The notes beneath the pieces were generated by a model, which was given only the letters and a program-made list of their open reading frames with translations, did not search any database and was not told where the DNA came from. A program made the position numbers and the translations under genes. A stretch of 64,000 nt of DNA, taken from Trametes villosa. Taxonomy: Eukaryota > Basidiomycota > Agaricomycetes > Polyporales > Polyporaceae. Each line of letters begins with the position of its first letter. Positions within the stretch are counted from its first letter, which is position 1. The stretch lies in assembly GCA_002964805.2 (NCBI GenBank), contig PUDQ02000003.1:4154001-4218000 (forward strand), written 5' to 3'. Of the stretch, positions 1 to 42,100 are shown piece after piece.

Positions 1-308
1 GCCAGAGCGCGACAAGAACGAGGACGCAGCAGCTATCGGTGTAAGTAATGCAGTCGATGTCGCCACGGGACCACTACGTCTCACTCCCACGTTCGCACGT
101 TGTTGTCGCCCAGTGCTCATGATATCGATCTCCCGCACACCCGCACATATCTGCTGTCATCGATTCGTGAACGGCGAGAGCGAAGGCGGCGTCGCTCCCT
201 CGTTGCAACGTTTGTTCACTCTGGGGGGCTTGTTGAACGATTAATCTGCCACATCTCTGCTCGCTTTTTCCTGCTCGCTTTTTCCGAGGACCTGCTAGCT
301 ATCTCCTG
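1..308. other. Upstream region of DUF6535 gene 1
   Basis: No coding sequence is supported here. It lies directly 5' of the first ATG of the DUF6535 gene and probably holds its promoter and 5' leader. I saw no convincing TATA box. Confidence 0.3.
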
Positions 309-2996: not shown

Positions 2997-5900
2997 GCGA
3001 CCATCACCCTCCCTCTGCCAATCACTGCCCCTCAGGCTCGGTGGAGGGTTCCAATTGCACGCGGAGTCTTTCCTTGCGAGTTACCGGGTTGCCGTTTGCC
3101 TACCCTCAGCTCCGACATGCCCTCCTCCCTCACGTTCTCACTGTCGCCATCCAACGCCCTTCGCCTTCTTGCGGCGTCGCCGCCAAATGGCCTTCCGCGA
3201 CGCGTACGCACTGCCTCAGCGTAGCGCACCTGCACCCATCACTCCGCACCCCTCCGGGGAATGCTTCACAACCATCGAAACTCTCTGTTTGCTCCTAACT
3301 CGCTGTCATCCGCACGCGGTACCGGTGCGTACCTCAGAACAGCCTCCCGTGCATCGTCATGTCTGTTGGATCCCTTCCACCCCTCTACAATCCTGACAAT
3401 GCTCCCCGAAATCCGCTCCAATTTTGCGCGATCACGTAGTCTTCAAGTACTTTGCCTTCCGTCTTGCTATGTACGATACTCATGTGTACGCTGTCTTCCC
3501 TCCGCTCGTGATCCTTCCACCGCACGCATGTTACGCGCTCTGGCCCTTACTCGTCTCCCTACTATGTACCCCGTTACTCCTCTCCCACCCGTTTCGCTAC
3601 ACGCCCTTGTCGATCGCGTTTCTCCCTCCTTACCTTCACCTAGCATTGCGAAATTGACGTGATTCCTTTGCTCACATCACACGTCGATATTTAGTCCAGA
3701 CAGTGTACGTACCAACTCCGAGGCCGACATCGCGTTCTTCCGAGGCAGAGTACGGACGTCGCACGCCTTCTAGATAGCTGGCTCGATAGCGCTCGAGCCG
3801 ACCTTGCGTCTGTGTCCTGGACTCGAAATACAGTATCTATTCCGTGAACGCGTCTCGCGCATCGCGATACGACCACCCTCGCGCGGTGCGCGTCACAAAA
3901 CAATGCGCCGAATGTACGTCTGCGGGCCCTTCCCAGAATATCGGCCGGCCGCGGGTGACACGGATCGCGCTCGCGCCTCCCTACCCTGAGGCCCACATGT
4001 GAAGAGCAGCATACGCATGCGCCTGCCGGTACTCGTGCGATGGGGGTAAGCGCGACGCTCATCACCGACGACTTAGGCCACGGTGTGATTGTCTCGGCGA
4101 CACGGCGAGCGACCCCACGTATGCGCACGCGTACGGGCGGCGCAGGTATGCCATCGCACAGCCGAGTGCGTCTGTGTCTGCGGCCGCATCAGCGGAGACT
4201 CCGAGGCAGTCTGCGGATAGCCGGGCGTACCTATGAGAGCGCGTCCCCCATGTTTGTATTGAGGAGAGCGCGTCGAGCATGCGCGACGAGAATCCTCGAG
4301 CTCGAGCGTGCCCGTCCCATTCGACGAGCGCGCAGTGGGCTAGCTGGATGCGTGTGCTGAGAGTGGCGGGAGGACGCACCGACTCGTTGTCGCGCTGAAC
4401 GTCGCGATGTCGGTGTTGAAGGATATAGGTCCAGCACGCGTCTGGACGCGTTTCGATACCAGTACGATACCGCGCTGAGTGCGCGCTTATTAGCTTACAT
4501 AATACGTCGCGCCGGTCTTTTCACCACCGTCTCTCGTCTTCCCTCCCTCAGCTGCTACACCCTACGTGCCGCAGACTGAGGTGAGAACATTCGTTATTCT
4601 TCTGTTCCATTCGCATTACTCACACAGTACTGTAGTCTAACCGTCTCGTACTATAGGTAATGCAATACAGCTGCTACACCCTACGTGCCGCAGACTGAGT
4701 CTAACCGTCTCGTACTATAGCGTCCGCGACCCCCGACAAAAGTCGGATGGTGCCCTCGAGGGGGCGGCGCGGCATCTCCGCACCATCGGCGCAGTCGGCG
4801 GGGTAAGGAACCTGAGCGGAGACTGTGTGCGAGCTCAGAACTGCAGGGTGCGGCGCGGCGCGGAGTTCTGAGCACTCACCGTACAACCTGAGATGCGGAC
4901 GCAGATAGCGCGCCGGGGAGCTGCCGGCGAGCGATGGCCTAGAAGGCGACACACAGCAGACGACCGGCGTTTTCCGTGTTCCTTGTTGACGTGAAGCCAG
5001 CGAGGATGCCCATGCCTGTCGGGGTCGCGCGCTGGTAGTCGCGTCGAGCACTTGCATATTGAATCGCGAGACGCAGTCCGCGGCACTCGGAGGCGAGGTC
5101 GTCCGATTGCGCGCTCGCCCGCTTGTGCCCCCGCGGAGGAGAGCGGGCGGGTGGGTAGGCTGAGGACGAGCATAGACTCGATAGATGGGCCGGTGAGATG
5201 CTTCGAGTCCGGGTGTACTGACGAGGAGGGAGAGACTCACTGGGCGACGGTAGGCTCCACGATGCGATGACAGCCTAGCTGAGGCGAGGTTGAGGTGTAG
5301 TGGGGGCGTAGAGTGTAAGGAGACCGCGCAGCGCAGCAGGGTTTACGAAGGGTACCGGACACACGAGGCCGAGAGCGAGCTTCGGAAAGCCTGCCAAGCA
5401 TTCCAACACCACACGGAGAGCACGTATGTGCAATATGCGATCCCCGAGGACGCAGTCTGTACGCGGTAAGAACATTGATACTTGGGCAGGGCAAACAGAA
5501 ACGTCAAGAGCTCAGACGTACAGGGAGAGAGCGCGCAGAGCTGGGTTCAGGAGCCCTGAAGAGGCTGTTCCCGGTATGCGCGAAAGGCTTGTGACGCGTA
5601 TGTTGGGAGGATGATAGGATGAGCGAGGGTGGTGACCGGAGGGTGATCATCCGGTTGTGGCACCCGCGAACGGCGAACGCGCACTTGCGGCTGGACGCTC
5701 GCATCATCATGAGCGCTGGGGCCACTTCGCGGGCGAATGTCGCACGTCTTGGAGCGCGTCTTGGAGCGCGCACCGACATGCGGGATGAGTGAAGTGCTCC
5801 GAGTAATTCGGGAGCGTCTTGACCGCCTCGGTTGCAGGGATACTGCCACGGGCTCGGATGAAACGAGGATCCGGGAGTGAGGGCGTTCGTAGAGAACGCA

Positions 5901-25377: not shown

Positions 25378-28300
25378 ATGTCGTGCCCACCACCCTCATC
25401 CTTCATTCTGGCTGCCCGGGCCCAGCAGCGACATCGCAGCCGCTGCTGGTGCAGCGCGCATTGTGGCCATGGTGTGGGGCAGTCACTTGGATTACCAGTG
25501 GCTACCCCTACCGCTAGTGCCGCGATGCTGCCCGCCTGCCGTTCTATCGACTCAGATTTCCGCGATCATGCATTCAACAACTTGCCATCCCTATCTGCTC
25601 GCTCGACTCGGGGCACTTCCACCATGCTGCCTCTCCACACGCGCGCCGCCGCCCCCTCACGTTCTCTGCCCCCCACTTCTTATCGTCCGCCACCATCCGC
25701 CACCGCCTCCGGCGTCGGCTATGATACCACGCCCGCGTAGGGGCCGCCGCGCACTATGTCCAGCAGCCACGCCCAGCTTGGCAATTTCAGCTCGCGCCGC
25801 CGCATTCTTTGCTCACACAATGCTCATCTCCCCGACTGCCTCCGCCAGCCTTCCCGCGCATATACCTGAACATGCCTCAATGGCTCATAGGACTGCCCCG
25901 CACATGCCTGATACAGCCTGGGCGGAACGGATGCGCAATGAGTGAGTTACACGGCCGCCAAAATCCGCGCCCCGCGCCCGCAAGCTCCCCGCGCTCCCGT
26001 CTCGCCCCTCCACGCCCCGCCCCGCCAAGCTCAGGGGACGTTAAGCAGACGTTCGCTATGCCGCCATTATGCGGACGAAGCCGCCGCATGCGTCGTTCAA
26101 GCGGGATCGCCGGCGCACCGCGACCGTCTTGCCCGCCTCTTCCCTCGACGCCCCGGCACTCTGAGACAATTGGCGTGTGCGGCGGCGGTACAGACAGACA
26201 GAGGATACGATAACGGCCCTACGGGTACCTTTACAGTTTCTCTGACTACGATTCAACCGCTCACAACGCCCCTCTTTCACAGCACCCACCCGCTAAGCCA
26301 CCGATTATCACCTCAGCACACACCCGGAAAGCAGGAGAAGACCCGCATACACGGCCTGCCGAGGCCCTGGACAAGTCCCGCACCGGGCGGAGACTCGGTT
26401 CTCCAGCCCCTGCCGCCCGCCTTCCCGCCCTCCTCCCGCGGATGCCCCGTGGTTGCCCCGCTTCGTATCTACTGCAAGCGACGTTCGCCGGCCACTCCTC
26501 GCCCGGGTACGTTTCCCAAGCGTCTGCACGCGATACGCGCTGACGACCTCCATTTCTTAGACAGTCCACGGCCAGACTCGGAACCCCCGCTACATGGGGT
26601 CCACTCGCGTTCCCCTGCCCGTTTTTGTACCGCAGACACGCCCAATGCACCGCTTTGGCACTCCCCACCGCATCAGAGCCGTGCATTGTCGTCCGGGCCC
26701 GCGCTGGGTACGTGTGCCGCCTGCCGCCGCCCTCGAGGAGGCCGCCACAGCGTGCCTCCACGGGCGCGCTGCACGCTTAGAATGCGTGCGGTGCGTGCGT
26801 GGAGGCACACACTGCGCACTTGGGTACGCGCGCACGGATGCGTCACGGCCGCGCCGTGTGTAGCGCCGCTGCCCCGCCAGTACGCCCGCCCCCGCCAAGC
26901 CGGCGGCACCCTCCAACGCCGTCCCCCGCCCAGACCGCCGCACAAACACAACGCGGGGACACACACACCACACTGCAGCCGCTGCGGCCGCCCCGGCGCG
27001 ATCCGCGGCAAAATTCTCACCTCAATCATGCGCAATTTCATGGGCGCAGCCCGTGGCATGCCCGCACAGAACTGCACGCCACCGACCCCGCCGCGGTCCT
27101 TCCGCCGTGCCTGTGCGGAGGCACACTCCCTTAGCCCTGCCTTATCCTCTGTCGTCGGCGGGAAGCCCGGGCGGCGAGTCTGGGCTCCACCCTTCTCGTC
27201 GACCCCGGGGGGCGGCCGACCGCGCACTCGTCCCACTGAATGCCCGCACCTTCAAACCGCGCGCAACGCCCGGGAAGCGGCCGGCTCTCTTTCCCGCCGT
27301 ATGCTTCGAGCACTCACCACTCGCTCCGCGCGGCAGGGAACCCGCCAGCCCCCGGGCCCGTCTGCAGCAGGCCAAGTGGAGACCACTCCGGGAAACGTTG
27401 CCCGGCGGACACCTGTACATCACATCACATCAGTCTATTTATCTCCGATCAGCCAGTCGGCCTGTGCGGGTCTAATTGACTTGAATCTCCACATCCCCCT
27501 CTCTACTAATAAAACTACCAATAATTCGCCCGTTCCCTTTTGCGGAAAGAGCTCCCTCCCCCTAGTGCGCAAGTCCAAAGCGCCCTCCTCCCTTCCCCGG
27601 CAAGTCCCGGGCGTTGATAGCAGCCACCGCCTAGCCCGCCCGGCGCCTTCCCCTCGGCAACCGGGCTCCGCGCGCCTCGGACTCCGCCCCGCCACCCCGC
27701 CCCAGCGCTCCCCGCCATCAAACGCCCGTCGGCGCCGTCCCCAACGATGAGCAAGCCCGCCCCGCGTTCCCGCCGTGTTTCCCGCCCTTTTCGCCCGCTT
27801 CTTTTTGTAACTAAGGTATATTAAAGTGTATATAACGGATCCTAGGGTCTACATAGTGTCTAGTACGCGCCGAAGCGCAGGGGGTAAGTAGTGGCGGGTA
27901 GTGGCAGATCGGTCATCTTATCAGTAGATCTCACGGCTGATAAGAGCTCTCCCCGCGTAAGCCGGAGACGCGATCGCGCGTTCCCACGCGCTCCCCCCGC
28001 CGCCAAGTCCCCTCCCCGCCCCCCGCCCCGCCTCATGTCAACGAGCTACGGCGTGCAATGCAAGTGTGCTTTGTAGCACAAGCAGCACCATAGAGTGCTC
28101 TCCAAGAGCGTGGGCGGGAGGAGAAGTGCGATGACGCGGGGAGCGTCATCGGCTATCTCGGCTCATCCGATCGCTTCGCGAGCTCTTAAGTAATAGTATC
28201 ACTTACAAGTGTGTTTACATGTACTTACTGCCTCCCACTTAAAGTCTTACAAGTTCATATAACAGTTTGAGGGACGTGACAAGATAGCTGTATAACAAAG

Positions 28301-28486
28301 AGAGCACTAAGGACTTGCAAGACATACTATGGGATGTACTGATTACAAAAGCGAGGTATATGAGGACTTAACAAAGAGCACCGACCACTCGAGCAGAGCC
28401 TCCTGGCGTGCGCGGCGAAGAAGACGCGGAGGGGGGGGGCACCGTAACGACGGCGTCGAGGGCGCGCGCGCGACCATTGAGCAGCT
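25378..28486. other. Strongly C-rich segment without supported genes
   Basis: From about 25.4 to 27.8 kb the plus strand is very rich in C and CpG and poor in A/T, so stop codons are rare and long frames appear in several registers, including a 602-codon frame at 25942-27750 made almost wholly of Pro/Arg/Ala/Ser. That frame has no domain and shares its openness with frames on the other strand, so I do not call it. From 27.8 to 28.4 kb the sequence turns AT-richer and then meets the foldback. A run of nine G lies near 28431. Confidence 0.4.
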
Positions 28487-31050
28487 GCTGTTGCAGTTCT
28501 GATGCATCAGGTTCCGTCAAACGGCCTGCACCTTATTGCATCAGGTTCCGTGCGCGGCCTATGCCGTAATTCTGCCCCCGGTGAAGCCCCGTGAAGCCCC
28601 CGGGCCCTGCTATATATGGTAGGAGCCCGGCGGCAGCAGTGCTATCAGCCCGAGATAAGCTCATTGGGCTTATCTTGGCTAGATAGCACTGCTAGCAGAT
28701 CTCCGGCGCCCCCGGGCGCTTTTTTTTGATCAGCCACATCCCGATTAGGCAGGCCTGCCTCTGCCCACCACTATAGGGCAACCCTCTCCTCGATTACTCG
28801 GCGACCCCTGGGCGGATTCGCCTCGCAAATGGCGCGTTTTATTCGCATTTCCAAGGGCTACAGGGCGCAGCAAACGCGCAGAGATTTGGGTAAGTACTGA
28901 CTGCTTTATCAGGTGGTGTAGTAGGCAGCTTAGGGCGACGCGATCTGGGCGATAGCTCGCCCGTTTCGCGTCGCCCTCGCACGCGCATGGGCTCCCCAGA
29001 AAGCCGTGATACAGGGCTTTCGAACGAGCCCACATGCGCGCAAATTGGCCCAGCGGTTGTGACGCTGCCCTCTACCCACTCTGGGCAGGAGGGCAGGGTC
29101 ACCTTCCTCCCCCAGATCTCCATGGATTCGCATCTTCTGCTGCCCATACGATGGCTAACGTTCTAAAGTATTTAGGGCATGCTCTGATGGAGAATCCGGG
29201 CACGGTGGGAGCCCTAGGGGAGGCCCTGGAGCTTCGCTCTGTGGGCCAGCTCCTGGGCGACAGTTTCGGGCGTAGCGCAACGACGCCTCCGCGCGCCGCT
29301 ACGATACGCATATCCCCGGAAAGCTGCTGAATGCAGCTTTCCGTTGGTATGCTTACCGTAGCGATCCGACCGCTGGGTGAAACGCGGCCACCTCTGCTCC
29401 TTGACACACCCCCGGGGCCCTTCATTTGCCCACTACTCATCCACATCCCGGCCGTTTTGGCTGATTCCTTCTTGCTGTACTTTGGAACACATAGCTCAAC
29501 ATGCCCATGGTTTGCGATCAAATTTAATCTCCCTCGCTGTCTGGCTGTGTGCTTATCAGTAGCTCCAGCAGGGGGTGCACTTTCCAGCGCCCTCCCCGAC
29601 CTTCCCTCCACCCGATTAGCCTGAAAATTCACAATGCGCTAGCATCAGGGTATAACTATCAGTGTGAAAAAAATCTAGGGAATGCGAGCTCTCGTGGGGG
29701 AGTTATGGATGAATCACCTCGGGCAGTGCTCAGCCACAGGCCGTCTTAAGACGGTCTCGGCGGCTGCCCGAGGCTTGCACACAATGTAGCACTGTAGGGA
29801 ACCCCTGTAGAAGGGTAAAACATGTATCTCTGCAAGTTCCTATCCGTTTTCTTTCATTCAAGTTACAACCAAGAGCTGTACTTATGCACTATGTACCCAG
29901 GACGTCAGTGAGCTAACCCCAGGCTTCATTAGTAGACAAAGGAGCATAATGTTTTGTACTCTCTGCTACCTGAGATATGCAATATTGAAATAACGGAGAT
30001 TGGAGGGGATATCTAGGCATATTAACTACTTGGACATAAACAATACTTGCTAGGAAGACTCAGAAATGAACCGAGGGGGGCATGGACTGGCCGCTGGAAC
30101 ATAGGAGGGCAGGGGAGCTATAGGGTGGTGTGGCGAGGTGAAGAGACGACCGCACAACAACGAGCGGTCGGATCGCCACGATAAGCATACCAACAGAAAG
30201 CTGCGTTCAGCAGCTTTCCGGGGATATGCGTATCGTGGCGGCGCGCGAAGGCGTCGTCGCGCTACGCCTGAAACAGCCGCCCAGGAGCTGGCCCACAGAG
30301 CAAAGCTCTAGGGCCTTCCCTAGGGGTCCCACCGTGCCCGGAGGTTTGATGAGAGCATGCCTTGCGTGTTTTGAGACGTCAGTAAACGTCCGAGGGGTAC
30401 CCGGGGTGAATCTGTGAAGATCTGGCTCAGGGATGTGGCCCTGCCCTCCTGCCCAGAGTGGGTAGAGGGCAGCGTCACAACCGCTGGGCCAATTTGCGCG
30501 CATGTGGGCTCGTTAGAAAGCCCTGTATGAGGGCTTTCCGGGGATCCCACACGCGCGCAAAGGCGACGCGAAACGGGCGAGCTATCGCCCAGATCGCGTC
30601 GCCCTAAGCTGCCTACTACACCACCTGATAAAGCAGTCAGTACTTACCCAAATCTCTGCGCGTTTGCTGCGCCCTGTAGCCCTTGGAAATGCGAATAAAA
30701 CGCGCCATTTGCGAGGCGAATCCGCCCAGGGGTCGCCGAGTAATCGAGGAGAGGGTTGCCCTATAGTGGTGGGCAGAGGCAGGCCTGCCTAATCGGGATG
30801 TGGCTGATCAAAAAAAAGCGCCCGGGGGCACCGGAGATCTGCTAGCAGTGCTATCTAGCCAAGATAAGCCCAATGAGCTTATCTCGGGCTGATAGCACTG
30901 TTGCCGCCGGGCTCCTACCATATATAGCAGGGCCCGGGGGCTTCACTGGGCTTCACCGGGGGCAGAATTACGGCATAGGCCGCGCACGGAACCTGATGCA
31001 ATAAGGTGCAGGCCGTTTGACGGAACCTGATGCATCAGAACTGCCACAGC
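28487..31050. repeat. Giant foldback: 888-bp inverted arms around a 788-bp spacer
   Basis: The left arm 28487-29374 and right arm 30163-31050 are reverse complements with mirror positions summing to 59537 at both the outer and inner ends, so any indels are balanced. The outer ends carry the palindrome CTGATGCATCAG. Each arm contains its own stem-loops, e.g. 28636-28692 (arm GCAGTGCTATC, inner stem GATAAGC), 28933-28976 (arm GGGCGACGCGA, inner GGGCGA) and 29318-29342 (arm GGAAAGCTGC). A TATATAT lies at 28611-28617 with its mirror in the right arm. No transposase is inside. The right end abuts the gypsy protease reading frame. I found no convincing target-site duplication. Confidence 0.92.
29375..30162. 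other. Spacer of the giant foldback, AT-richer, with a central hairpin
   Basis: No gene seen. It contains a stem CCTCGGGCAG (29717-29726) pairing with 29764-29773, enclosing the perfect palindrome CCGTCTTAAGACGG at 29741-29754. This lies about 23 bp from the geometric centre of the foldback. The right part of the spacer is AT-rich and unstructured. Confidence 0.6.
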
Positions 31051-31514
31051 TTGTGCTACAGGCCCAGCGCACACTATGCGCTGAGATTACAATCAATAAG
31101 GTCACAGCTCTGGCCTTATTCGACTCGGGCTGCACGACCGATTCGATCACGCCAGAGTTGGCGTATCTGAGTCGCGCAGATCGTATCGATCTGGCGCAGC
31201 CTGTAGGGCTGCAATTGGGAACCAAGGGCAGCAAGACGCGCATCAATTATGGTGCGCAAGCAGAGCTCAAGGTGGGCTCTGTGAATACTACGCAATACTT
31301 TGACGTAGTAGACATCGATAAGTACGATGTCGTGTTGGGAACTACCTTCTGCAGGAAGCATGGAGTAATCCTAGACTTCCGTGCAGGTACGGTAGTAATC
31401 AACGGCAAAAGTTTGCCGTTGTTCGATCCTGAGGTTTCGACGACTGCGAAACCCGAACCCAAGAAATGGGTTCCTCGATTCCAATTCGAAGGTACTGCTA
31501 AACCTAAGCAGTAG
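31017..31514 (+). CDS. Gypsy aspartic protease (retropepsin) region, 5'-truncated
   Basis: A retropepsin-like domain that would mature the Gag-Pol polyprotein. The active-site motif is FDSGCTTDSI (catalytic Asp in DSG) near residue 40. A flap-like segment follows, then YDVVLGTTFCRKHGVILDF, matching the second conserved hydrophobic block of gypsy proteases. The frame is open from about 31005 but has no ATG before the motif, consistent with loss of gag and the 5' part. It ends at a single UAG (31512-31514). The next ORF is in the same frame, so protease and RT were one polyprotein, joined either by stop readthrough or formerly by a sense codon. Confidence 0.85.
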   Translation: MTEPDASELPQLVLQAQRTLCAEITINKVTALALFDSGCTTDSITPELAYLSRADRIDLAQPVGLQLGTKGSKTRINYGAQAELKVGSVNTTQYFDVVDIDKYDVVLGTTFCRKHGVILDFRAGTVVINGKSLPLFDPEVSTTAKPEPKKWVPRFQFEGTAKPKQ

Positions 31515-34500
31515 GACAACGTAGCGAGTTCCACAAGAGTGGAACCTCCCCACTCTCGTTACGACAAGTCCGGAGGGTCGTCAGGAGGGGGAGGGAACAG
31601 TGTAGAAACCGTTAAGATTCCTGAACGACACCAAGGGCGAGCCAAAGATAGCTCGCCGCCGAACATTGGCGAAAAATTCATTCCGACGATGCATTCGTCG
31701 CGAGGTCCTAGAAGGGACAAGTATGGGTACGAGGACCCATACGGCATCAACGAGCTCTTGGACAAAATAGCCAAGGAGCAGTGGGAGGACGAACAGATCC
31801 GACGAACCCACGCTGGGTTCGTCATAGACGAGGAAGAGGAGGAGCTGAAAGCTCTTCGTGACCGCTGGTATGCGGCCACCGAGGACATTATGCGTCCTGC
31901 GCCGGAGCATCTCCCGCCGTTCCGGGAGATCAATCACCACATCCCGCTCATCGATGAAGCGAAGAAATATCGCTATCATCTCCCACGTTGCGCGGACGTG
32001 GTGAAGCCAGAGCTCATAGCGAAAATCAATCGCTATGTGAAGGCAGGCTGGTGGCGACCGGTAACGGTCACGCAAGCAGCGCCTCTGCTGTGCGTTGCCA
32101 AGAAGAATGGCAAGCTGCGCACCGTGCTCGATGCGCGACAACGAAACCAGAACACGGTGCACGACCTGACACCGTTTCCGGATCAAGACCAGATCCGGAT
32201 GGACGTTGCTCGAGCGAAGTATCGCTCGAAGATTGATCTGTCCGACGCCTACGAACAGATCCGCATAGTTGCGGAGGACGTGTGGAAGACCGCGTTCGCG
32301 ACGCCTTACGGGACGTTCGTGAGCGAGGTCATGCAACAGGGCGACACCAACGCCCCGTCCACATTCCAACGTCTAATGACAGCCATATTCCGTGACTGTA
32401 TCGGAAGGTTCGTCCATGTCTATTTGGACGACATTTTCGTATTTTCGGACTCCAAGGAGGAGCACGAAGAACACTTAAGGATAGTGTTCGAAAAGCTTCG
32501 AGAGGCGAAGCTTTTCCTAAGCCGCAGCAAGTGCGACTTATACTCCAAAGATTTGGATTGTCTCGGTCACCGAATAGATGACAAGGGACTACACGCCGAT
32601 ACGGACAAGATGAGCCGTATCAGGAACTGGCGAACACCTCGCTCGTATAACGAGGTGCAGCGGTTCCTCGGGCTAGTAAACTATCTGGCACATTTTATGC
32701 CAGATGTAACGGCGTACACATCGCCGTTATCGGACATGGTCCATAACGACCGTCCGTTCGTATGGCGCGCACTGCACGACAAGTGCTTTGAGTCTATCAA
32801 AGCACTCGCGTGTAAGGTGCCCATACTGAAGCCGATAGATCCGGCTTCCACAGATCCCATTTGGTTGATCTGTGATGCGTCCGTGTATGGACTCGGAGCG
32901 TTATACGGGCAAGGACCCGACTGGCAAACTTGCAGGCCAGCCGGGTTCCTGTCGAAGAAATTTACGTCCGCACAACGGGCGTATCGCACCTACGAGCAAG
33001 AAGCTCTAGCCATCATGGAAGGCTTGTTCAAGTGGGAGGACAAGCTCATAGGACGAAAGCTCAATATAGTCACTGACCATAGAGCTCTCGAGTTCCTTGA
33101 GGGACTCGAGCGTCCTAACCACCGTCAGATACGGTGGTACGAATTCTTGTCGAGGTTCGACAAGACGATTACCTATATTCCAGGTAAACTGAACAAAGTA
33201 GCGGACTGTTTGTCCCGCTACTTCGAACATGACGACATAGAGGAACTAGCCGAAGATTTCGACTATGTTAACGCCGACTTGCGGCTAGACCCTGAAGGGG
33301 ATGATCTCCCCTTCTCCCGACTCATCGAGCTACGCGCAGCTCGAGTGTTGCGTCGATCTGCGCGGAAACTCGCGCAGCTAGAGACAGACAACGCGCACGC
33401 TACACGCGTGCAAGAACCAATAGAGGAACGAGTCGTAGAGTCGGCTCGTTACGCTGCACACGCACCTATCTCGGTGACTGCAGCAGCCACGGACAGCGAC
33501 AATGTGACGCTGTCGGACTCGCTATCTGCGGGTCCCTCTTTGCGTGTCTGGGTAGAAGGAGACGACGGCTTCCTGAAAGCCGTCAAGTCAGGTTATGTTA
33601 ATGACCCGACGTTCCAGAAAATACTGGAACGGCCTACTCAGCATCGCGCATTCGTAATGCGCGAGGGTGTGATATACACCAAGAACCGTGAAGGCGACGA
33701 GGTATTGTGTATACCTCGTGGTCTGTATCGGAAACGGGCCCTTCAGGAGCTCGTGTTAGACCAAGCGCATAGCGCGCTTGGACATCTTGGACCTCAGCGC
33801 ACGTCAGAGTACGTGCGCAAGTGGTTTTGGTGGCCCGCGTTACGCAAGGATGTAGACAAGTTCTGCATTTCGTGCGGCGTGTGCCACACCACGAAAATAA
33901 GTACACAGCCCCCTATAGGGCTGTTACACTCGCTACCGATACCTACGGTGCCATGGACGTCTATGTCCATGGATTTCTTCGGTCCGTTTCCGCCCTCGCA
34001 CGGATACGACTACATATGGATTGTAGTCTGTCGGTTGACCTCGATGGTACACCTCATACCCATCAAGACAACCGACACAGCGTCAGACCTGGCGCTGGTC
34101 TACTTCAGGGAAGTAGTCCGTCTACACGGGCTACCGGACTCCATAGTCTCTGATAGAGACTCGAAGTTCACTTCCAAGTTCTGGAAGGAGCTGCATCGCC
34201 TTATGGGGGCGAAGCTGCTTATGTCCACGTCGTTCCATCCACAGACGGATGGATTATCTGAGCGTAGTATACGCTCAGTGTCGCAGATACTCCGTGCACT
34301 GGTAGCTCCTGACCAGTTGGACTGGTATGAGAAGCTACCGATAGCGGAGTTCGCTATCAACTCTGCGGTAAGTTCTACCACAGGGTTCGCTCCGTTCGAG
34401 TTGAACTACGGGTATCTCCCGCGTTCTATGAACGGAATCGGAACGGACACTCCGTTTCGAGGAGTGCGAGAGTTCGCACTCAGAGCCAAGGCGAACCTGG

Positions 34501-35060
34501 AGATGGCGCATGATGCCATCATCGAGGCGCGAGTGCGCCAGACACACTATGCGAATAAGCATAGGCAAGCCGAACCCGACTTTGAGGTCGGGGACAAGGT
34601 ATACCTATCGACAAAGAATTTGTCGATACCTAAGGGCCGGGCACGAAAGCTCGTGCCTAAATACATCGGACCGTATGCTATAATTGAGAGCATACCCAGT
34701 ACGTCAAACTACGTACTGGAGTTACCAGAAGAACTCCGGAACCGAAGGATACACCCTCGGTTCCACGCGTCGCTATTACGACGCTATGAGCCAAACGACG
34801 ATGCGGTATTCCCGCATCGTGAGGCGAAGTCGTATTACGACTTCGGCAATGAAGACTCCACCGAATGGTTGGTGGAAGAGATTATCGGCCACGAGTGGAA
34901 TGGCAATAAGTGCCAGTTCCACGTGCGGTGGACGATGGGGGACCATACATGGGAACCCTACGAGCACTGTAAGGAGCTCGTAGCATTAGACGAGTATTGT
35001 CGTCTAATGGGCGTGTCATCTTGGCGCGCGTTGCCCAAGAAAACATCCGCCAAGACTTAG
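31515..35060 (+). CDS. Gypsy reverse transcriptase - RNase H - integrase - chromodomain polyprotein
   Basis: Copies the element's RNA to DNA and inserts it. Counting from 31539: RT with the polymerase motif YLDDIFVF at about residue 295 and KIDLSDAYEQ before it; the connection FLGLVNYLAHF; RNase H with Asp in ICDASVYGLGA, Glu in YEQEALAI and Asp in VTDHRALEF; integrase with an HHCC-type finger (LGHLG..CISCGVCH) and DDE residues in SMDFFGPF (about 812), SDRDSKF and GLSERSIRS; and a chromodomain at about 1108-1155 (WLVEEIIG..CQFHVRW..HTWEP), which in chromoviruses targets heterochromatin. All catalytic residues are present and no frameshift is seen over about 1170 codons. The sequence is saturated with stem-loops. 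There is no obvious independent start; expression probably depends on the upstream frame. Confidence 0.93.
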   Translation, partial: DNVASSTRVEPPHSRYDKSGGSSGGGGNSVETVKIPERHQGRAKDSSPPNIGEKFIPTMHSSRGPRRDKYGYEDPYGINELLDKIAKEQWEDEQIRRTHAGFVIDEEEEELKALRDRWYAATEDIMRPAPEHLPPFREINHHIPLIDEAKKYRYHLPRCADVVKPELIAKINRYVKAGWWRPVTVTQAAPLLCVAKKNGKLRTVLDARQRNQNTVHDLTPFPDQDQIRMDVARAKYRSKIDLSDAYEQIRIVAEDVWKTAFATPYGTFVSEVMQQGDTNAPSTFQRLMTAIFRDCIGRFVHVYLDDIFVFSDSKEEHEEHLRIVFEKLREAKLFLSRSKCDLYSKDLDCLGHRIDDKGLHADTDKMSRIRNWRTPRSYNEVQRFLGLVNYLAHFMPDVTAYTSPLSDMVHNDRPFVWRALHDKCFESIKALACKVPILKPIDPASTDPIWLICDASVYGLGALYGQGPDWQTCRPAGFLSKKFTSAQRAYRTYEQEALAIMEGLFKWEDKLIGRKLNIVTDHRALEFLEGLERPNHRQIRWYEFLSRFDKTITYIPGKLNKVADCLSRYFEHDDIEELAEDFDYVNADLRLDPEGDDLPFSRLIELRAARVLRRSARKLAQLETDNAHATRVQEPIEERVVESARYAAHAPISVTAAATDSDNVTLSDSLSAGPSLRVWVEGDDGFLKAVKSGYVNDPTFQKILERPTQHRAFVMREGVIYTKNREGDEVLCIPRGLYRKRALQELVLDQAHSALGHLGPQRTSEYVRKWFWWPALRKDVDKFCISCGVCHTTKISTQPPIGLLHSLPIPTVPWTSMSMDFFGPFPPSHGYDYIWIVVCRLTSMVHLIPIKTTDTASDLALVYFREVVRLHGLPDSIVSDRDSKFTSKFWKELHRLMGAKLLMSTSFHPQTDGLSERSIRSVSQILRALVAPDQLDWYEKLPIAEFAINSAVSSTTGFAPFELNYGYLPRSMNGIGTDTPFRGVREFALRAKANLEMAHDAIIEARVRQTHYANKHRQAEPDFEVGDKVYLSTKNLSIPKGRARKLVPKYIGPYAIIESIPSTSNYVLELPEELRNRRIHPRFHASLLRRYEPNDDAVFPHREAKSYYDFGNEDSTEWLVEEIIGHEWNGNKCQFHVRWTMGDHTWEPYEHCKELVALDEYCRLMGVSSWRALPKKTSAKT

Positions 35061-35307
35061 CGGATGTACGAAGCGCAACATGCGCTTCGTGGTCAAGACT
35101 ACCCGATTGAGTAGTCGTGGTGAAGGACAGAGCACGCGCAGAGAGCGCGTGACCGTGAAGTAGTACGTCACGTGCAGGCTCGCGTGCGCGAGGCAGCCAC
35201 CGACGCGTTCGGACTCCGCCGGCGCTTTAAGACGGCGACCTCGCGAGTGCAGGGTCATAACCGACCTCTGCCACCTCACCACCACCACCAACAACGACGC
35301 CCGCGCC

Positions 35308-37875
35308 ATGAACGACGCCCCGCAAGACAACACGCAAGCCAGCGGCTCCGGGCAGCAAGCCTCGGAGCAACAGGGGTCGCAACCTGCGGCCCCTCAACAA
35401 CAAAACATCCCCTTCCCCCAACCTTCGCAGTTCCTGCTGCCGCAACAAGCGGCAGCTCCCGCATTCTCGTCCATGCCGGGGGTAACCCACCCCCAGCAGT
35501 TCCCGCATGCCTTCTCGCAGGGCATGCCCGCCTACGGGTTTCCGTACGGCGGCGGCTTCCAGTTCCCGCATCAAGCGGGTCCTGCATTCCAGAGCGCGCC
35601 CAGTTCGAGCGCGCCGATGCCACAGACTGGTGGCATCCCCCTCATGCCCTTCTCGAGCATGACCTGGGCGCCCGTAGCGGGCCAACACTTGTTGGTCGCG
35701 CACAGCGACAACTGCGCTGTGTGCGCGGACTTTGTCCGCCACTACAACTCGGCGGCGTCAGACTCGACGTTCCGGGACGCGCAGACGCGCGTCCAGTCAG
35801 AACTGCAGCAGCGGTTCTGGCGGCACTTCGAGGAGCACCAGAGGGTGGAGGAGGGGAGGAGCCGCGATCGGATCGCGGAGCTCGAGGCGAAGCTCCAGAA
35901 GATGAAGGAGCTCGTCGACGAGACGAAGTCGATCCGGGACAGATACCGGAGCGAGCGCGAGGCCGCTCGCCAGGAGCGCGACGAGTACGAGCGCGAGCGC
36001 GATGAGGTGCGCTCGCAGTTGGAGGCTGAGCTCAGTCGGGCTCGGCACAGGAGGGCGTCGCCTCCGCGCGACGAACGACGACGCGACCCGAGGGAACTCA
36101 GCCCTCGGAGGAGGGATACTGCGAACGATAGGTCGTTCGCGTCGACATCAAGGAGCTCAGCGCCGTCCGCTGGGCCCAGCTTGATGCCGATCGTGTCGCT
36201 GCCCAGCGGGGCAGGACCATCGAGGACTGGAGCGTCGCAGATGACGACGCCAAATGTGGCAGGACCGTCGAACTCGACGGCGATGCCGACCTCGTCGACA
36301 TCCGCGGACCGGGACCACCCTATGGTGGACTGGGAGAACGCGACGAGCGACGAGGACGACGACATCGACGAGAGGCGGATCGAGAGACTCGTCTCTCGAA
36401 ACCGATATCGTCGTGCTCGTCGCGACACTGGCCCGGCACATGCTCCGGGTCAGGGCGCGCCGTTTGGCACGCAACCTCCGCCGCAACCAGCGACGGATGT
36501 GGCGAGGGTCCCCGGGTGGCCGTACCACCTGTTGGCCCTCCCCACCGACTCGGACCCGCGTCTCGCGGGGCACTGGTACAACTACGTGCCGGTGTCCGTC
36601 GCGGACGCCAACAACATCATCATGGCTGCTCGCCGTGATACGGGTGAGGCGGCTCACCGCATCCGCGACCTAATTGGTCAAGTGAACTCCCGTTCGGAGT
36701 ACACAGGAGTGGCTGGTCTCAACCAGCTACAGTCGTCGTGGCGTCGAGAGGCGCCGCCGCCGCTGATCGCGGCGGTTCAACGAGCCGACTCCCGGGGAAA
36801 CACTCCCCCTGGACTCGAGCACGCGTCGACGGCGCACTTGCCGCCGCCGTCGTCGACCCTCTCGCGCAAGCGGACGCCCGCCGAGTGGCGGGAGGTCAAA
36901 CTGAAGCTGCGTGCCCAGCGCACGGCGCCGGCCCCAAACCAGCCGAGCTTCAGTGACCCGCCTGCTGTGTGGCAGGCTTGGTATGGCGTCGATGAGCGCC
37001 GTATCCCTCAGTGGATGGAGCGGGAGCCAAATGGGCTTCCTACGACGCGCAGCGTGGAGTACCACGTTGCCGTTCGAGCGATGCTGCCGCGCGGCACGCC
37101 ACTGGGACCGCGAGGGCATTGGGTGACCCTCGCCCACTGGCTGTTTTCAGTGCCGGGGCTCTACCGTTACGTGGTAGAGCAGGGGCAGTACCCCGTGGGT
37201 ACTAGCTACCACCCGGGCCCCTACCCCAACGACGTCGCAAGCACGACGTTGTTCCATCTAGCGCGCTGGTTTGCGGCGCGCGGTCTTACCCCGACGGCTG
37301 CGGAGCGGTTCCTGCCGCTCGCGAGACTGTGCCGCAACGAGCGGAACGGGCGCGACCTTCGGTCGCTGCTGCCTCAAATGGATGGCGGCCCGAATTCGAC
37401 TCTCGACGTCGGAGTCGTGCCCAGTTCGCGGGACTTGGGACCAGTCGCCACAGGCGGCCCACTGCCGCCCCCCAACGCGCCCGCACCTGCGCCCGCACCC
37501 GTACCCGCACCAGCACCCGCACCCGTACCAGCACCCCCGCAGGCGCCCGAGGCGCCTGCCGTTACCACCGACGACGTCGACATGACCGACGCGTCCACTA
37601 CCACCGCCGCGACCGCCATAACTGCGGTCGCCGAACCGTCGAGCATTGCCTCGACCCCGTCACACATAGTGGCGGGTACCCATCCCGATGACGGAGTCCC
37701 ACCTCCGCCGTACTCCCCCGCTCGCGCGATGGAGGACGTGCAGGAGGCACCCGTCGCCGGTCCTTCCCAACCGCCTGCCGCTACTAGCGACAGGCACGAC
37801 GAGAGCGAGAACGCGACGGGTGAGCAGGGATCCTCCCCTCTCACCCCGTCATCGCCACACGACGACACCGCGTAG
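35308..37875 (+). CDS. Extra ORF downstream of gypsy pol, coiled-coil protein
   Basis: 855 aa, function unknown. It sits 247 bp after pol, where an additional ORF (env-like position) would be. ATG 35308 begins MNDAPQDNTQASGSG. Residues 1-130 are Gln/Pro/Phe-rich. CAVCADFVRHYN follows, then a long charged coiled coil (about 160-245, RDRIAELEAKLQKMKELVDE), a Ser/Arg-rich linker, and an ordered domain (about 540-700) with WQAWYGVDERRIPQWME and HWVTLAHWLFSVPGLYRYVV. The C-terminus is Pro/Ala-rich with a short tandem repeat near 37477-37540. No zinc knuckle, signal peptide or transmembrane span is seen, so it looks neither like a standard Gag nucleocapsid nor like an envelope. Coiled-coil self-assembly could let it act as a divergent Gag; that is inference. 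Confidence 0.75.
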   Translation: MNDAPQDNTQASGSGQQASEQQGSQPAAPQQQNIPFPQPSQFLLPQQAAAPAFSSMPGVTHPQQFPHAFSQGMPAYGFPYGGGFQFPHQAGPAFQSAPSSSAPMPQTGGIPLMPFSSMTWAPVAGQHLLVAHSDNCAVCADFVRHYNSAASDSTFRDAQTRVQSELQQRFWRHFEEHQRVEEGRSRDRIAELEAKLQKMKELVDETKSIRDRYRSEREAARQERDEYERERDEVRSQLEAELSRARHRRASPPRDERRRDPRELSPRRRDTANDRSFASTSRSSAPSAGPSLMPIVSLPSGAGPSRTGASQMTTPNVAGPSNSTAMPTSSTSADRDHPMVDWENATSDEDDDIDERRIERLVSRNRYRRARRDTGPAHAPGQGAPFGTQPPPQPATDVARVPGWPYHLLALPTDSDPRLAGHWYNYVPVSVADANNIIMAARRDTGEAAHRIRDLIGQVNSRSEYTGVAGLNQLQSSWRREAPPPLIAAVQRADSRGNTPPGLEHASTAHLPPPSSTLSRKRTPAEWREVKLKLRAQRTAPAPNQPSFSDPPAVWQAWYGVDERRIPQWMEREPNGLPTTRSVEYHVAVRAMLPRGTPLGPRGHWVTLAHWLFSVPGLYRYVVEQGQYPVGTSYHPGPYPNDVASTTLFHLARWFAARGLTPTAAERFLPLARLCRNERNGRDLRSLLPQMDGGPNSTLDVGVVPSSRDLGPVATGGPLPPPNAPAPAPAPVPAPAPAPVPAPPQAPEAPAVTTDDVDMTDASTTTAATAITAVAEPSSIASTPSHIVAGTHPDDGVPPPPYSPARAMEDVQEAPVAGPSQPPAATSDRHDESENATGEQGSSPLTPSSPHDDTA

Positions 37876-38349
37876 GTGTCTAATCACAACCTTCGAGTGC
37901 ATCCGTCATGCACTCGTCGTATACCACGACGGTATGACTGCAAATATTTGCAGTCCCCGTAGGAGACGATATTATCGTCTCCTCGGGCATAACGCAACCG
38001 ATCTGCGTCAAAAATTGATCGGTTCGTCCGCCATAGCTGCGGTACTAATGTACATAGCCGCACCCCACGGTGCGCGCATCCATAACCCAAAAAACAAAAA
38101 CACTACCATATCATGGTAGTGTAGTGGTATGACTGCTAATATCTGCAGTCGTGTATATATCCCACTACACTGCTGTGACCACACCGTGAGCCTACTTGGC
38201 TCACTAACTCATTGTATATATATGAGTTGCGCACGCACTATGCGCAACTCTTTGTATCATATAGTGCTATGACTGCGAATATCAGCAGTCGTTCCTTTTA
38301 CTATAATATTCTATTGTAGACCCGTACAACGGGTCTAGAGGGGGAGAGT
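37876..38349 (+). promoter_or_regulatory. Gypsy 3' untranslated region with repeated palindromes and polypurine tract
   Basis: It holds three related palindromes, each after a TAT: 37936-37955 (GACTGCAAATATTTGCAGTC, perfect), 38131-38150 and 38271-38290. It also has strong stem-loops at 37961-37983 (arm AGGAGACGAT, 3-nt loop) and 38101-38121 (arm CACTACCAT, 3-nt loop). The purine run at 38338-38349 is the likely primer for plus-strand synthesis. Confidence 0.75.
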
Positions 38350-38636
38350 GTAACGACCCTCCGTGGTCGTTACGGGTTATTGCAGGACATAGCGCTAGTT
38401 GCGCTATGTCGCGAGATGTACCTAGCGCTAGTTGCGCTAGGATAAGATACCGCGTAGATATCATGTATTAGATAGACGCGTACGACGCGCGGGTATTCGG
38501 AGCCTGCGCGTCTGGTGAGGGCAGCCTTCTACAACTGCCCCACCATCTCCCGAGTACGCCGAGCCCTAATAGAGCCCGGACCAGAGTACTTGGAGACTGC
38601 GGGCATCAGAAGTGCCCGACACCCGTGAGTTTTACA
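38350..38636 (+). repeat. 3' LTR of the gypsy element
   Basis: 287 bp, starting TGTAACGACC just after the polypurine tract and ending TTTTACA. It contains hairpins 38351-38374 (arm GTAACGACC), 38388-38410 (arm ACATAGCGC) and 38422-38442 (arm CCTAGCGC), the last two sharing the loop TAGTT. No matching 5' LTR is in the window, so the 3' end is inferred from the TG..CA ends rather than from a pair. Confidence 0.65.
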
Positions 38637-38820
38637 CCATGTCTACTGAGCTCCCACGCAGATCTGCCGCTGCACATACCAGAGGTGAGGGCACATACAC
38701 TATCAATAATGACATAGCTCATCTGCTTCCTAAATCAGTCCTGGGACGGCGAACGTTTCGTGGGTACCACACTCCGGGATCTCGGTATGAGAGCACGTAG
38801 TCGGACTGGGGCTGTGATCT

Positions 38821-38999
38821 GCGAGAGAAGACGAGCGGGCCTCAGTACGTGTGCTCGGGCGGGAGCAAAGACTAATATATTTGCATGTACCTGCGAGAGA
38901 AGACGAGCGGGCTAGGTACATAGTAAGCAACGATGAACGCAGTAATGAACGGACGGCGAGCTTACCCTCAGTACGTGTGCTCGGGCGGGAGCAAAGACT
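38821..38999 (+). repeat. Pair of short interleaved direct repeats
   Basis: Unit A (GCGAGAGAAGACGAGCGGGC) occurs at 38821-38840 and 38893-38912. Unit B, 33 bp containing CGTGTGCTCGGGCGGGAGC, occurs at 38841-38873 and 38967-38999. The copies are identical. They lie just 5' of the KDZ transposase and may be subterminal repeats of that element. Confidence 0.7.
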
Positions 39000-39196
39000 G
39001 AGGGGGCGGCATCGCGAGGCGGCTGGTATATGTGAGGGCGAGCGAGCGTGAGGTAAGGCACGTCGCGTGCGCCAAGGCGGCGCGCGACGTGCGTAGACGA
39101 ACGAAAAAGGGAAAGCGTAGCACTAAATATGGTAGGTATCGTAATCAGAGCGAGGCGGGAAAACAAACGGTACCGTATCGCGCGGGCGGACGGTAC

Positions 39197-42100
39197 ATGC
39201 GCGGGCTGGGCGCGCACCCCAACGCCGACCTGCCGCTCCTCGTGATTGAGGGCGGCGGTCGCGCTCAGGATTGCGCTCCAACACTCGGGCTCGTCCTGCA
39301 GCTCGGGCATCACGGCAGTTGCACGTATCCGGCAAAGTCTTCGCGAAGCGTAATGGTGGTCGACGTGGGCGGCGTACAGTTCGTCCAGATGCGCTTCTGC
39401 AAATGCGTGGGCGAGAACACGGTGGTGACACCGGAATGGACGCAGCTGCTCCGCGAGGGGTGGTTCCCGGCAACTACCACGCGCCTGGAAACGGCCTTCA
39501 CGTTCCGCGTGCTCGCAACGTTTCACGAATTGAACCTTCAAGGGAAAACGAACCTCTACGACTTCTGCAAGACACTAGAGCGCCTCACGGACAATTCGGG
39601 CACTGTAGATGTCTCGGTAACAAGCCCTCCTGTAGCCCTCTTCATGTATTGCGGTTTTGCTGATTCCATCGCTTCGTACAGAATATCTACAAGCCGATGT
39701 CGCACTCCGTGCGATTATGGCGGCACCTGACACTGCTCAAGCGGTCCGGCCGCGCCCATGATCCACTCCACGCCGAGGGTACCAAGGAAGGGCAGCTTGC
39801 CCTGGCATGTCCTGCGTGCCCGCACCCTGGCATCAACATCCCAAGCGACTGGCAATCCGCGCCTGCGAACGTTCGGTGCGTGGTTAGCTCGCTCGAGACC
39901 TCATAGTACCATAGGTGGCTGATGTCTATATAGGTGGCTGTACACGCTCTTTCTCATGATGGACGCAAACTTCCGCGCCCGTTGCAAGGACCGGGGTTTC
40001 GAAGATGTTCATCTTACCCCAGGATGGGCCTATTACGTGGAGGAATCGCGCTATCAAGAACATCTCAAGGCGCGCAGTGGCGACCGGCAAGAGGTACACT
40101 TAATCTGCGGGAGCTCGTGATCGAGTAGTAACACTGACATTATATGTTCAGGAAAACACTTGCTCCGTCGAACACAATGCGATCTTGAAGGCTAGCATCC
40201 GTCGGGAAGGGTATGTCGCGTCCGGCGTCGGCGCGGTTCTTTGCGCCCGTCACGCCCTTGTCCGTCCGAATGGGGCAGGGGACCTTCAGCTCGGAGAAAG
40301 GTGACGTCCCACGCGCTCCTTCTGGCATATGCACTCCTGACTCCCGAGGAACTGATTGCGATGATTCTACAGACAAGCCAACATGGACTATCTGGCGTTC
40401 TCGACCCTTGTGGGGTGCCTCCTCGCGCTGATGATATCATACGATATTGTCTGCCAGTGGTACCGGCACCTGTGGGAACGCATGTCGAACTTCCCGTCGA
40501 AGATGCGTCTTGATCGCTCCAAGATCCCGGAGATACGGTTCACCATCCCGAAAGAGCACATTCGCGTGCACGGGCCGGGACATTCCCGATTCTCGTTCAA
40601 TTTCCTCCCCCGCGTCGGCCGGACGTACGGTGAGGGGATCGAATCACAGTGGGCTTTCATGAATCCGCTCGCTCTGAGTACTCGTGAGATGAGTCTTGGG
40701 GCACGGCAAGAGCTAATGAATGATCATTGGGGATCATGGAACTGGTCGAAGATCATATCTTTTGGTGAGAGGCCTTGTAATATCTGTGGGGCTCACTAAT
40801 ACAATCGACTCATAGGGCCCGGTCTGTTACGCCCTCTAGAAGAGGCTCACGCTATGTCTCTCGAACAGGGGCGGGTGTTTCGTGCGTACTCAAAAACATT
40901 CCCGCCCGAGGTGGTCCAGACCTGGCAGGAGATGATCACTGCCTGGAACCGCGATCCGTCAAAGCCAGATCCGTATGAGGAGGCCAAGAGTAGTATGTGG
41001 CAGATGCGATCCCTCGATAAGGTTCGGCGGCTGATGTTGCTTCCATTCAGGCAGCTCATCATTGGCGCGTGTCAAGCACGAACTCGCCCTCGAGGAGGCC
41101 GCAGAAACCGGTCAGAACAGTGTTCCTGTCCACGACGTTTCCGTCGGTGTGTTCCTGCAAGTCGGACTCGACCTAGAGGATCAACAGTGCGTGCTGAGAG
41201 TTTGACTCAGGCTGTCTGCCCTGTATTGAGACAGCTAACAGTCTCTCCTCGTCAGGCGTTCCCTGCGGCTTCGGGGCCCGAATGGAAGCAGCATGACTGC
41301 GCTCGCCGAGCGCCAGGAAAAGCGGAACACGCTTGCCCGCCGTATCGAGCTGTGGCGCGCTATCCAAGATGTTCACATGCCGATGGCCGCCGCATTGCGC
41401 GCGGGCGCGAACTCTAACAGGGCTTCGTCTTCTCCCAACAACCGCGCCCGATCTCCTCACCCGGAGGACCTGCCTCTCCTGCTCCCCTCAGCTCTGCCCC
41501 CCGCCCTGTTATCTCTCGACACTCTGGCCAGTATAGTCAGCAAGGAACGGCGCCTCCGCCTCGCGCAGCTCGCGGATGCTCTGGATGACGTCCGACATCT
41601 GCGCCGGGTCCTCGCTGGCGCAGTTGATCATGCTCGTCGCAATGTGGACGGCGAGGGTCAGCGCGCGGTCACGCGCTTTCGCGACGTGTTCGAAAGCTTC
41701 CACGCGAAGGTAAAGCGCGCCGCAGAGCGTTATCGCGCAGCGCGCGAAGCTATGCTCGTCCTCGACCCGAACGGCTCCTGGATCCGGACCTATCAGCCCC
41801 TCCTGGACAGCGACATACGGGGCCCGCGACGCGACGACGACGAAGATGCCGGCTGGAGCGAGGGACGCTACGAGGTTAGTTGGATCTGGCTGGCGGCGAG
41901 CGTCTCTCGCGACGATCGCGACTTCGCGACGCCTGCGAGCGCAGAGGAATTCCAGGCCAGCATGCGCGTGGAGTGGGCTCGCGCGAAGGCACGCGCCGAG
42001 CGGTGGGAGGAAGAAGAACAGCTGCTAGTGGAGGAGATGCGTCGGGTCATCGCTTACTGTGAGTGGAAGAGCAAGTGGTGGACGACTCAGGAGGACCGCC

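What the first reader, a model, noticed from the sequence alone, without database searches (positions are those of the whole stretch)
31400..38450. Gypsy element saturated with short near-perfect stem-loops
Nearly every stretch I read closely in this element contains an inverted repeat with 7-11 bp arms and a tiny loop. Examples (left arm, span): AACGGCAAA 31401-31420; GTTCCAC 31528-31545; GACGAACCCA 31801-31823; TCGAGCGA 32210-32229; GAAAAGCTTCG 32490-32516; GACGGCTT 33564-33584; CGTTCCAG 33610-33631; TCGCGCAT 33644-33664; CCAAGCGC 33761-33781; GCGCACGT 33797-33818; CCATGGAC 33951-33972; CTGAGCGT 34258-34278; TATCGACAAA 34606-34628; CGAAGTCGT 34825-34845; ACATCCGC 35043-35067; ACGAAGCGC 35068-35090; CCGCGATC 35862-35878; GCGAACGA 36121-36140. 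For equal base use, a rough hand estimate is about 0.4 hairpins with 8-bp arms and 3-9 nt loops per 3.5 kb; I count more than ten in pol. They run through RT, integrase, the extra ORF, the UTR and the LTR, so codon choice itself seems bent to form hairpins while the protein stays intact. Possible causes are template-switch mutagenesis that turns imperfect palindromes into perfect ones, or selection for a folded genomic RNA (packaging, RNAi escape). I know of no description of such an element.
Basis: partly seen in the sequence, partly recalled or inferred. Interest (0 to 1): 0.87.

Follow-up and report, generated by a model that had tools for sequence, protein, structure and literature searches.

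The report
Fungal retrotransposon selected for tiny hairpins
A jumping element in a fungus has bent its codons so that its RNA folds into a dense row of short hairpins, an extreme form of a trait known from some RNA viruses and thought to shield RNA from the host.

Summary
All 18 listed hairpins are exact. 31055-38640 holds 93 perfect hairpins with arms >=7 bp, against 22 in 50 kb of flank. Pol has 31 with arms >=8 bp; 300 codon shuffles average 0.76, maximum 4.
It is a Ty3/Gypsy element: 33 of 47 matches in the genome are 94-100% identical. Relatives differ: families B and D1 are enriched, C, L041 and L046 not; 17 of 18 other retroelements fetched lack the excess.
Template-switch mutagenesis is not supported. 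Selection is: polymorphisms shared by several copies avoid arms (synonymous 9 vs 25.9 expected; loops 19 vs 12.1). The sense strand folds better than antisense in A and B, not in D.
[quoted passage not shown] Mean folding-energy excess over family A is 31.8%, against about 15% for SARS-CoV-2 and a quoted vertebrate-virus maximum of 23.4% (PMC7642675; methods differ). Stems rarely pass 10-11 bp, as reported for GORS.
The function, shielding from RNAi/RNases or particle packing, is inferred.

The parts
31055..38636 (+). 5'-truncated copy of the hairpin-saturated Ty3/Gypsy element (family A): protease - pol - ORF3 - 3' UTR - 3' LTR
   Evidence: homology starts at 31055 in 11 of the 12 longer family-A copies fetched; the twelfth, L018, begins at a contig end; LTR end
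31055..31511 (+). aspartyl protease piece (end of the gag-protease frame; upstream gag missing here, present in L010)
   Evidence: Pfam Asp_protease 5.2e-5, below its curated cut-off; the L010 frame 1-3015 runs from gag with a CCHC-like CYSCGQIGHFASDAKC motif (seen by eye) into protease
31539..35060 (+). pol: RT, RNase H, integrase, weak chromodomain match; 49 perfect hairpins with arms >=7
35308..37875 (+). ORF3, 855 aa, of unknown function, coiled-coil-like and low-complexity; a related ORF follows pol in family B (39% identity), a weakly similar one in C (23%); 19 hairpins with arms >=7
37876..38348 (+). 3' untranslated region with dense hairpins, ending in polypurine tract 38337-38348
38349..38636 (+). 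3' LTR (TGTAACGACC...TTTTACA, 288 bp)
   Evidence: 38469-38637 matches at 97.6% a stretch (L028 9585-9753) that lies just upstream of the C140 family-A copy
37936..38290 (+). three copies of one stem-loop, GACTGC-(N)AATAT(NN)-GCAGTC, at 37936-37955, 38131-38150, 38271-38290
28494..31043 (.). DNA transposon-like sequence with inverted arms of about 0.9 kb that abuts and truncates the 5' end; related sequences lie in the gag region of copies L011 and L013

Best explanation
[quoted passage not shown] Shown: the excess, its use of codon wobble, purifying selection on paired sites among copies, a sense-strand bias in families A and B, a stem-length ceiling near 10-11 bp, and restriction to some families of one Gypsy clade in this genome. 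Inferred: that the benefit is shielding of the RNA from host recognition and decay (RNAi is the leading candidate, since Argonaute, RdRP and Dicer domains are encoded), with compaction or protection of the RNA in virus-like particles as the main alternative benefit of the same trait.
For: Density against codon shuffles. Folding-energy excess (MFED) gag 29%, pol 38.6%, ORF3 21%, 3' end 53%, B pol 31%, D1 22% and two host stretches 0.5 and -0.1%; D2 16.5%. Context-matched polymorphisms: shared in arms 13 vs 32.4 expected (synonymous 9 vs 25.9), loops 20 vs 14.5; private differences without L019 22 vs 32.0, all 36 vs 61.6; rolled-mask null 0 of 3000 as low for shared sites with each of five reference copies. 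Sense more folded than antisense: A 31.8 vs 27.3% (p 0.005), B 25.7 vs 21.3% (p 0.0017); 8 other elements 4.7 vs 3.7% (p 0.19). Register bias 9/48 vs 124/273. Stem extension falls to background after 10 bp (5 of 24). Pairs local: 75% span <=30 nt against 46% in codon shuffles. Piwi, RdRP and Dicer_dimer domains found.
Against: G.U is hardly better tolerated than A.C in stems (obs/exp 0.64 vs 0.50), and stems with 1-2 internal mismatches show about as many A.C as G.U in A and B (A 38 vs 50, B 26 vs 27) and more A.C in D1 (12 vs 5): weaker than expected for pure sense-RNA selection. Loop A and T rise together, with no sense-specific A excess. The strand bias is absent in D (p 0.84), not significant for pol alone (A and B pooled, 33.5 vs 31.8, p 0.31), and one control, L045, leans the other way (p 0.042). 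Families with many RT matches, such as those of L035 and L036, lack the trait, so it is not needed for success. No expression, probing or small-RNA data.
Confidence: 0.72

Rival explanations
1. Mutational drive: template switching by reverse transcriptase or polymerase turns imperfect inverted repeats into perfect ones, with no benefit.
For: Would act along the whole element, coding and non-coding; near-equal numbers of G.U and A.C mismatches fit a strand-neutral process.
Against: A-B substitutions split evenly between the two arms (asymmetry 56 against 68.8 +- 8.1 under random splitting). Variants create hairpins no more than chance (17 vs 13.4 private, 7 vs 7.8 shared). Shared synonymous variants are missing from arms and not from loops. 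It predicts no sense-strand bias. A stepwise correction of single mismatches in either direction is less well excluded by the arm test than one-sided copying.
Confidence: 0.08
2. The hairpins mainly serve particle biology: compact folding or many Gag-binding stem-loops for packaging and protection of the genomic RNA in virus-like particles.
For: The bias is to the sense RNA in A and B; hairpins run through all regions; one stem-loop is repeated three times in the 3' UTR; an A copy's gag frame shows a CCHC-like motif.
Against: Hairpin positions turn over between A and B; families C, L041 and L046 with related pol do without (gag and a third ORF were seen for C only). No search for a shared loop motif was made.
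Confidence: 0.3
3. Selection acts on single-stranded DNA (cDNA intermediates or cruciforms) rather than on RNA.
For: G.U is only weakly favoured over A.C; the need for a loop holds for DNA too.
Against: Sense RNA folding excess exceeds antisense in A and B. I know of nothing in the cycle that would favour ordered minus-strand hairpins (inference).
Confidence: 0.1
4. Chance, base composition or codon usage.
For: None found.
Against: Codon, codon-and-dinucleotide and dinucleotide shuffles and 50 kb of flank; repeated in families B and D1.
Confidence: 0.01

Closest known systems
[quoted passage not shown] PMC3950689 passages, PMC7642675 passages and one section read)
   Same: Folding-energy excess along the whole genome, created by consecutive stem-loops; positions poorly conserved between relatives; present in some lineages and not others; predicted duplexes about 8-11 bp; diversity influenced by pairing.
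   Different: Carrier is a Ty3/Gypsy retrotransposon; MFED 31.8% on average over family A (regions 21-53%) against 7.5-10.7% HCV, 12.5% pegivirus, about 15% SARS-CoV-2 and a quoted maximum of 23.4%. Local peaks in viruses are as high (over 50% in SARS-CoV-2 ORF3a), and window size and shuffling differ. Many stems here are perfect Watson-Crick.
Ty1 and Ty3 retrotransposon genomic RNA (SHAPE-MaP; PMC11381356, abstract and passages read)
   Same: LTR-retrotransposon RNA with folded regions.
   Different: Stable, highly structured regions are given as up to 30% of Ty1 and Ty3; the passages seen do not mention codon-level saturation with hairpins, and 'synonymous' does not occur in its main text.
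Ty3/Gypsy elements of Trametes (pol 76-77% identity) and an unnamed Logan contig (86%)
   Same: Same pol domains.
   Different: Only their proteins are available here; their DNA could not be tested for hairpins.

Membership tests
Ty3/Gypsy (Metaviridae-type) LTR retrotransposon | pol order RT - RNase H - integrase | tested here: met
   RVT_1 187-346, RNase H 409-540, H2C2 733-787, rve 807-900 (below its cut-off), SH3_Tf2-1 1018-1083
Ty3/Gypsy (Metaviridae-type) LTR retrotransposon | two LTRs, primer binding site, polypurine tract | tested here: inconclusive
   3' LTR and polypurine tract seen; the window copy is 5'-truncated; for the C140 copy only part of a 5' LTR was seen and no primer site was sought
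Ty3/Gypsy (Metaviridae-type) LTR retrotransposon | gag with zinc knuckle, and protease | tested here: met
   family B: zf-CCHC and RVP_2 just over their cut-offs; family A: CCHC-like motif by eye and protease below its cut-off
Chromovirus | C-terminal chromodomain in integrase | tested here: inconclusive
   Chromo E 0.013, below cut-off, at pol 1111-1153
GORS | MFED above 3% across the genome | tested here: met
   regional means 21-53%; lowest single 250-nt window 2.6%. The threshold is lax here: C, L041, L046 (6-8%) and 7 of 14 other elements also pass it
GORS | duplexes short, never over 11 bp | tested here: inconclusive
   perfect stems, loops 3-10, pooled over A, B, D1, D2: 24 with >=10 bp, 5 with >=11, 2 with 12, both in B; family A's longest is 11
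GORS | pairing positions poorly conserved between relatives | tested here: met
   3 of 13 B pol hairpins are fully or all but one pair formed in A; few of 49 A pol hairpins are kept in B
GORS | constraint on diversity at paired sites | tested here: met
GORS | carrier is a positive-strand RNA virus | tested here: not met
   carrier is an LTR retrotransposon, so it works like GORS rather than being a viral member
GORS | compact, probe-inaccessible RNA | not testable with these tools
   needs RNA

The most novel reading that the evidence does not exclude
The element has made itself small-RNA-proof: because self-complementarity is packed into units of about 20-23 nt, both its RNA target sites and any siRNAs cut from either strand would fold on themselves, which defeats Argonaute guidance and RdRP copying, while stems stay too short for Dicer.
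Probability: 0.25. Interest if true: 0.92.

Novelty: new variant of a known kind. Interest (0 to 1): 0.77.

Why it matters
What large-scale RNA structure does for viruses is an open question in the papers read. Here it appears in a retrotransposon, on average above the whole-genome virus values quoted there, beside relatives with little of it in the same genome. Fungi with and without RNAi could turn the question into a direct genetic test, and it would show transposons evading defence through codon choice.

Tried and rejected
Template switching: not supported, by even arm divergence and no gain excess. A duplex-DNA palindrome code for dimeric proteins: unlikely, since at arms >=5 loops of 0-2 nt are not enriched and the listed arms differ from each other. 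A pressure on all retroelements of the host: not supported, 17 of 18 others fetched do not exceed their shuffles, although five have MFED of 6-10%. ORF3 as the cause: not supported, hairpin-poor family C has an ORF there too, but it is only 23% identical. A fixed 20-23 nt span rule: suggestive only; spans peak at 20-23 nt, but the cut at arms >=7 shapes that; arms and loops are negatively correlated in A (rho -0.29, p 0.0035 for loops 3-8), not in B; span predicts stem extension better than arm length in A; my null simulations did not match the arm-length distribution well, and a mixture of strong and chance hairpins could give the same sign. Known RNA families: none reach Rfam's gathering scores in 28000-39000. 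Viral contigs: no relative of pol.

Limits: DNA of relatives in other species was not reached: the genome has no relatives held and the metagenome cap is zero. Polymorphism counts used 15 aligned sequences (window plus 14); L008 was offered too but gave no alignment, probably because only the plus strand was searched. 305 private and 214 shared sites were found; 296 and 178 were used, where the window bears the commoner base; 21 biallelic shared sites where it bears the rarer one were counted apart (1 in arms, 3.8 expected); 15 sites that were not biallelic were dropped. Genome searches score only the best candidates, so copy counts are lower bounds.
Full report
What it is. The window lies in an unnamed 46.7-Mb genome, presumably of a polypore or related fungus: the nearest named pol homologues are from Trametes (76-77%). 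31055-38636 is a 5'-truncated copy of a Ty3/Gypsy element (protease, RT-RNase H-integrase, ORF3, 3' LTR). Of 47 matches to 32000-34000 in the genome, 33 are at 94-100% identity (family A; some may be pieces of one copy) and 14 at 67-75%.

Observation. All 18 listed hairpins are exact. Counts for 31055-38640 against 50 kb of flank are 93/53/23/10 against 22/11/3/0 for arms >=7/8/9/10. In pol there are 31 arms >=8 against a mean of 0.76 and maximum of 4 in 300 codon shuffles. At arms >=5 the excess is at loops of 3-10 nt and not at 0-2 nt, so the signal is about hairpins that can form, not about duplex palindromes; at arms >=7 a few 0-2 nt loops also occur (7 against 11 in 50 kb of flank).

Who has it. 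The twelve longer copies of A fetched carry it (L009-L020). Sister family B (69% nucleotide, 77% protein identity in pol) has 12 arms >=8 in pol and family C none. In the wider clade, D1 (L044) has 7 against 0.35 expected, while D2 (L047) has 2 against 0.38, not beyond its shuffles, though its folding excess is high (16.5%); L041 and L046 are at background. Of the 18 other RT elements fetched (L029-L046, L041, L044 and L046 among them) only L044 exceeds its shuffles. MFED: A gag 29, protease 45 (2 windows), pol 38.6, ORF3 21, 3' end 53; B pol 31; D1 22; C 7.5, L041 6.9, L046 6.3; L035 -1.5; host 0.5 and -0.1; 14 remaining elements -9.0 to 9.7. The weak members of the clade lie within the range of the unrelated elements, so an ancestral weak form of the trait is possible but not shown.

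Mutation or selection. With B for comparison, substitutions in A's 49 pol hairpins are shared evenly between arms (56 against 68.8 +- 8.1), and arms diverge as much as the sequence outside (0.32 against 0.31). Copying of one arm from the other predicts the opposite. Among 15 sequences, context-matched counts give shared polymorphisms in arms 13 vs 32.4, in loops 20 vs 14.5; synonymous only 9 vs 25.9 and 19 vs 12.1. Private differences, many of them probably later than insertion, are closer to neutral (22 vs 32.0 without L019; 36 vs 61.6 with it). New hairpins are not gained in excess. Rolling the arm mask along the element gave 0 of 3000 values as low for shared sites with each of five reference copies; for private sites without L019 the figure is 0.036 to 0.21. 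The rolled version leans toward depletion, because a hairpin broken in the reference is not counted, so one search is the cleaner figure. One two-sided change keeps a pair (L019, 35043/35067, A-T to G-C), and the hairpin at 34100-34116 is kept in B with both sides of one pair changed.

Built from codons. Third positions tend to pair with first or second positions; the 3-with-3 register is used by 9 of 48 pol hairpins against 124 of 273 in codon shuffles.

RNA and strand. Folding excess is larger on the sense strand in A (31.8 vs 27.3%, p 0.005) and B (25.7 vs 21.3%, p 0.0017), somewhat in C/L041/L046 (7.6 vs 4.7, p 0.035), not in D (p 0.84) nor in the 8 other elements given to that call (4.7 vs 3.7, p 0.19; one of them, L045, leans to antisense, p 0.042). 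Pol alone, A and B pooled, is not significant (33.5 vs 31.8, p 0.31). G.U is hardly better tolerated than A.C (0.64 vs 0.50 obs/exp), and loops gain A and T alike. I read this as selection on the sense RNA for strong, nearly perfect short stems; the strand evidence is moderate.

Shape. Pooled over A, B, D1 and D2, stems extend with probability 0.5-0.6 per pair from 5 to 9-10 bp and then at background (5 of 24 beyond 10). In A pol 75% of predicted pairs span 30 nt or less (46% in codon shuffles). Spans of hairpins with arms >=7 peak at 20-23 nt. A negative arm-loop correlation hints at a span limit in A, but not in B, and other causes are open.

Comparison. In PMC3950689 (passages) sequences with MFED above 3% are taken as GORS; PMC7642675 (passages and one section) quotes HCV 7.5-10.7%, pegivirus 12.5%, SARS-CoV-2 about 15% and a highest value of 23.4%, with local peaks over 50%. 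They also report poor conservation of positions between relatives, several hundred consecutive stem-loops, diversity influenced by pairing, and predicted duplexes mostly over 8 bp and never over 11. The element shows these sequence features, except that two perfect stems in family B reach 12 bp. It is not a positive-strand RNA virus, so I say it works like GORS rather than being a viral member. MFED depends on window size and shuffling, so the comparison of values is approximate.

Function. The genome encodes Piwi, RdRP and Dicer_dimer domains at several loci, some with stops or introns inside, so shielding from RNAi is possible; packing in particles is the chief alternative. Neither was tested. 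In the polypore Ganoderma sinense small RNAs of 18-30 nt and over 40 regions with small RNAs from both strands, 17 of them at chromosome ends rich in transposons, are reported (PMC4457147, passages and one section read).

Literature. Ten searches of the held open library listed no paper whose title or shown abstract describes such a retrotransposon; I saw listings and the passages named, no whole paper, and subscription journals are mostly absent.

Noticed in passing
28494-31043: DNA transposon-like sequence with inverted arms of about 0.9 kb (about 91-92% alike) abuts the truncated 5' end; diverged relatives sit in the gag region of two other family-A copies, L011 and L013 (window and 9 copies compared).
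   Followed up: partly
37936-37955, 38131-38150, 38271-38290: Three near copies of one stem-loop with stem GACTGC/GCAGTC and an AATAT core loop in the 3' UTR of the window copy; one to three exact matches in the seven other family-A copies that showed it. A candidate protein-binding hairpin.
   Followed up: partly
35308-37875: ORF3 (855 aa) has no Pfam domain at the usual cut-off; only 2 of 7991 candidates scored reached E 0.001 in a database of 5.8 billion proteins, one from Trametes coccinea.
   Followed up: partly
L028 9585-9753: The partial 5' LTR upstream of the C140 family-A copy lacks about the first 120 bp of the window's LTR.
   Followed up: no
40383-40799: ORF that resembles a KDZ-type transposase fragment (recalled, not tested).
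   Followed up: no
31055-38460, private differences among family-A copies: Private changes are mostly C>T and G>A (185 of 305), as expected from deamination of methylated cytosine or a RIP-like process (not tested).
   Followed up: no
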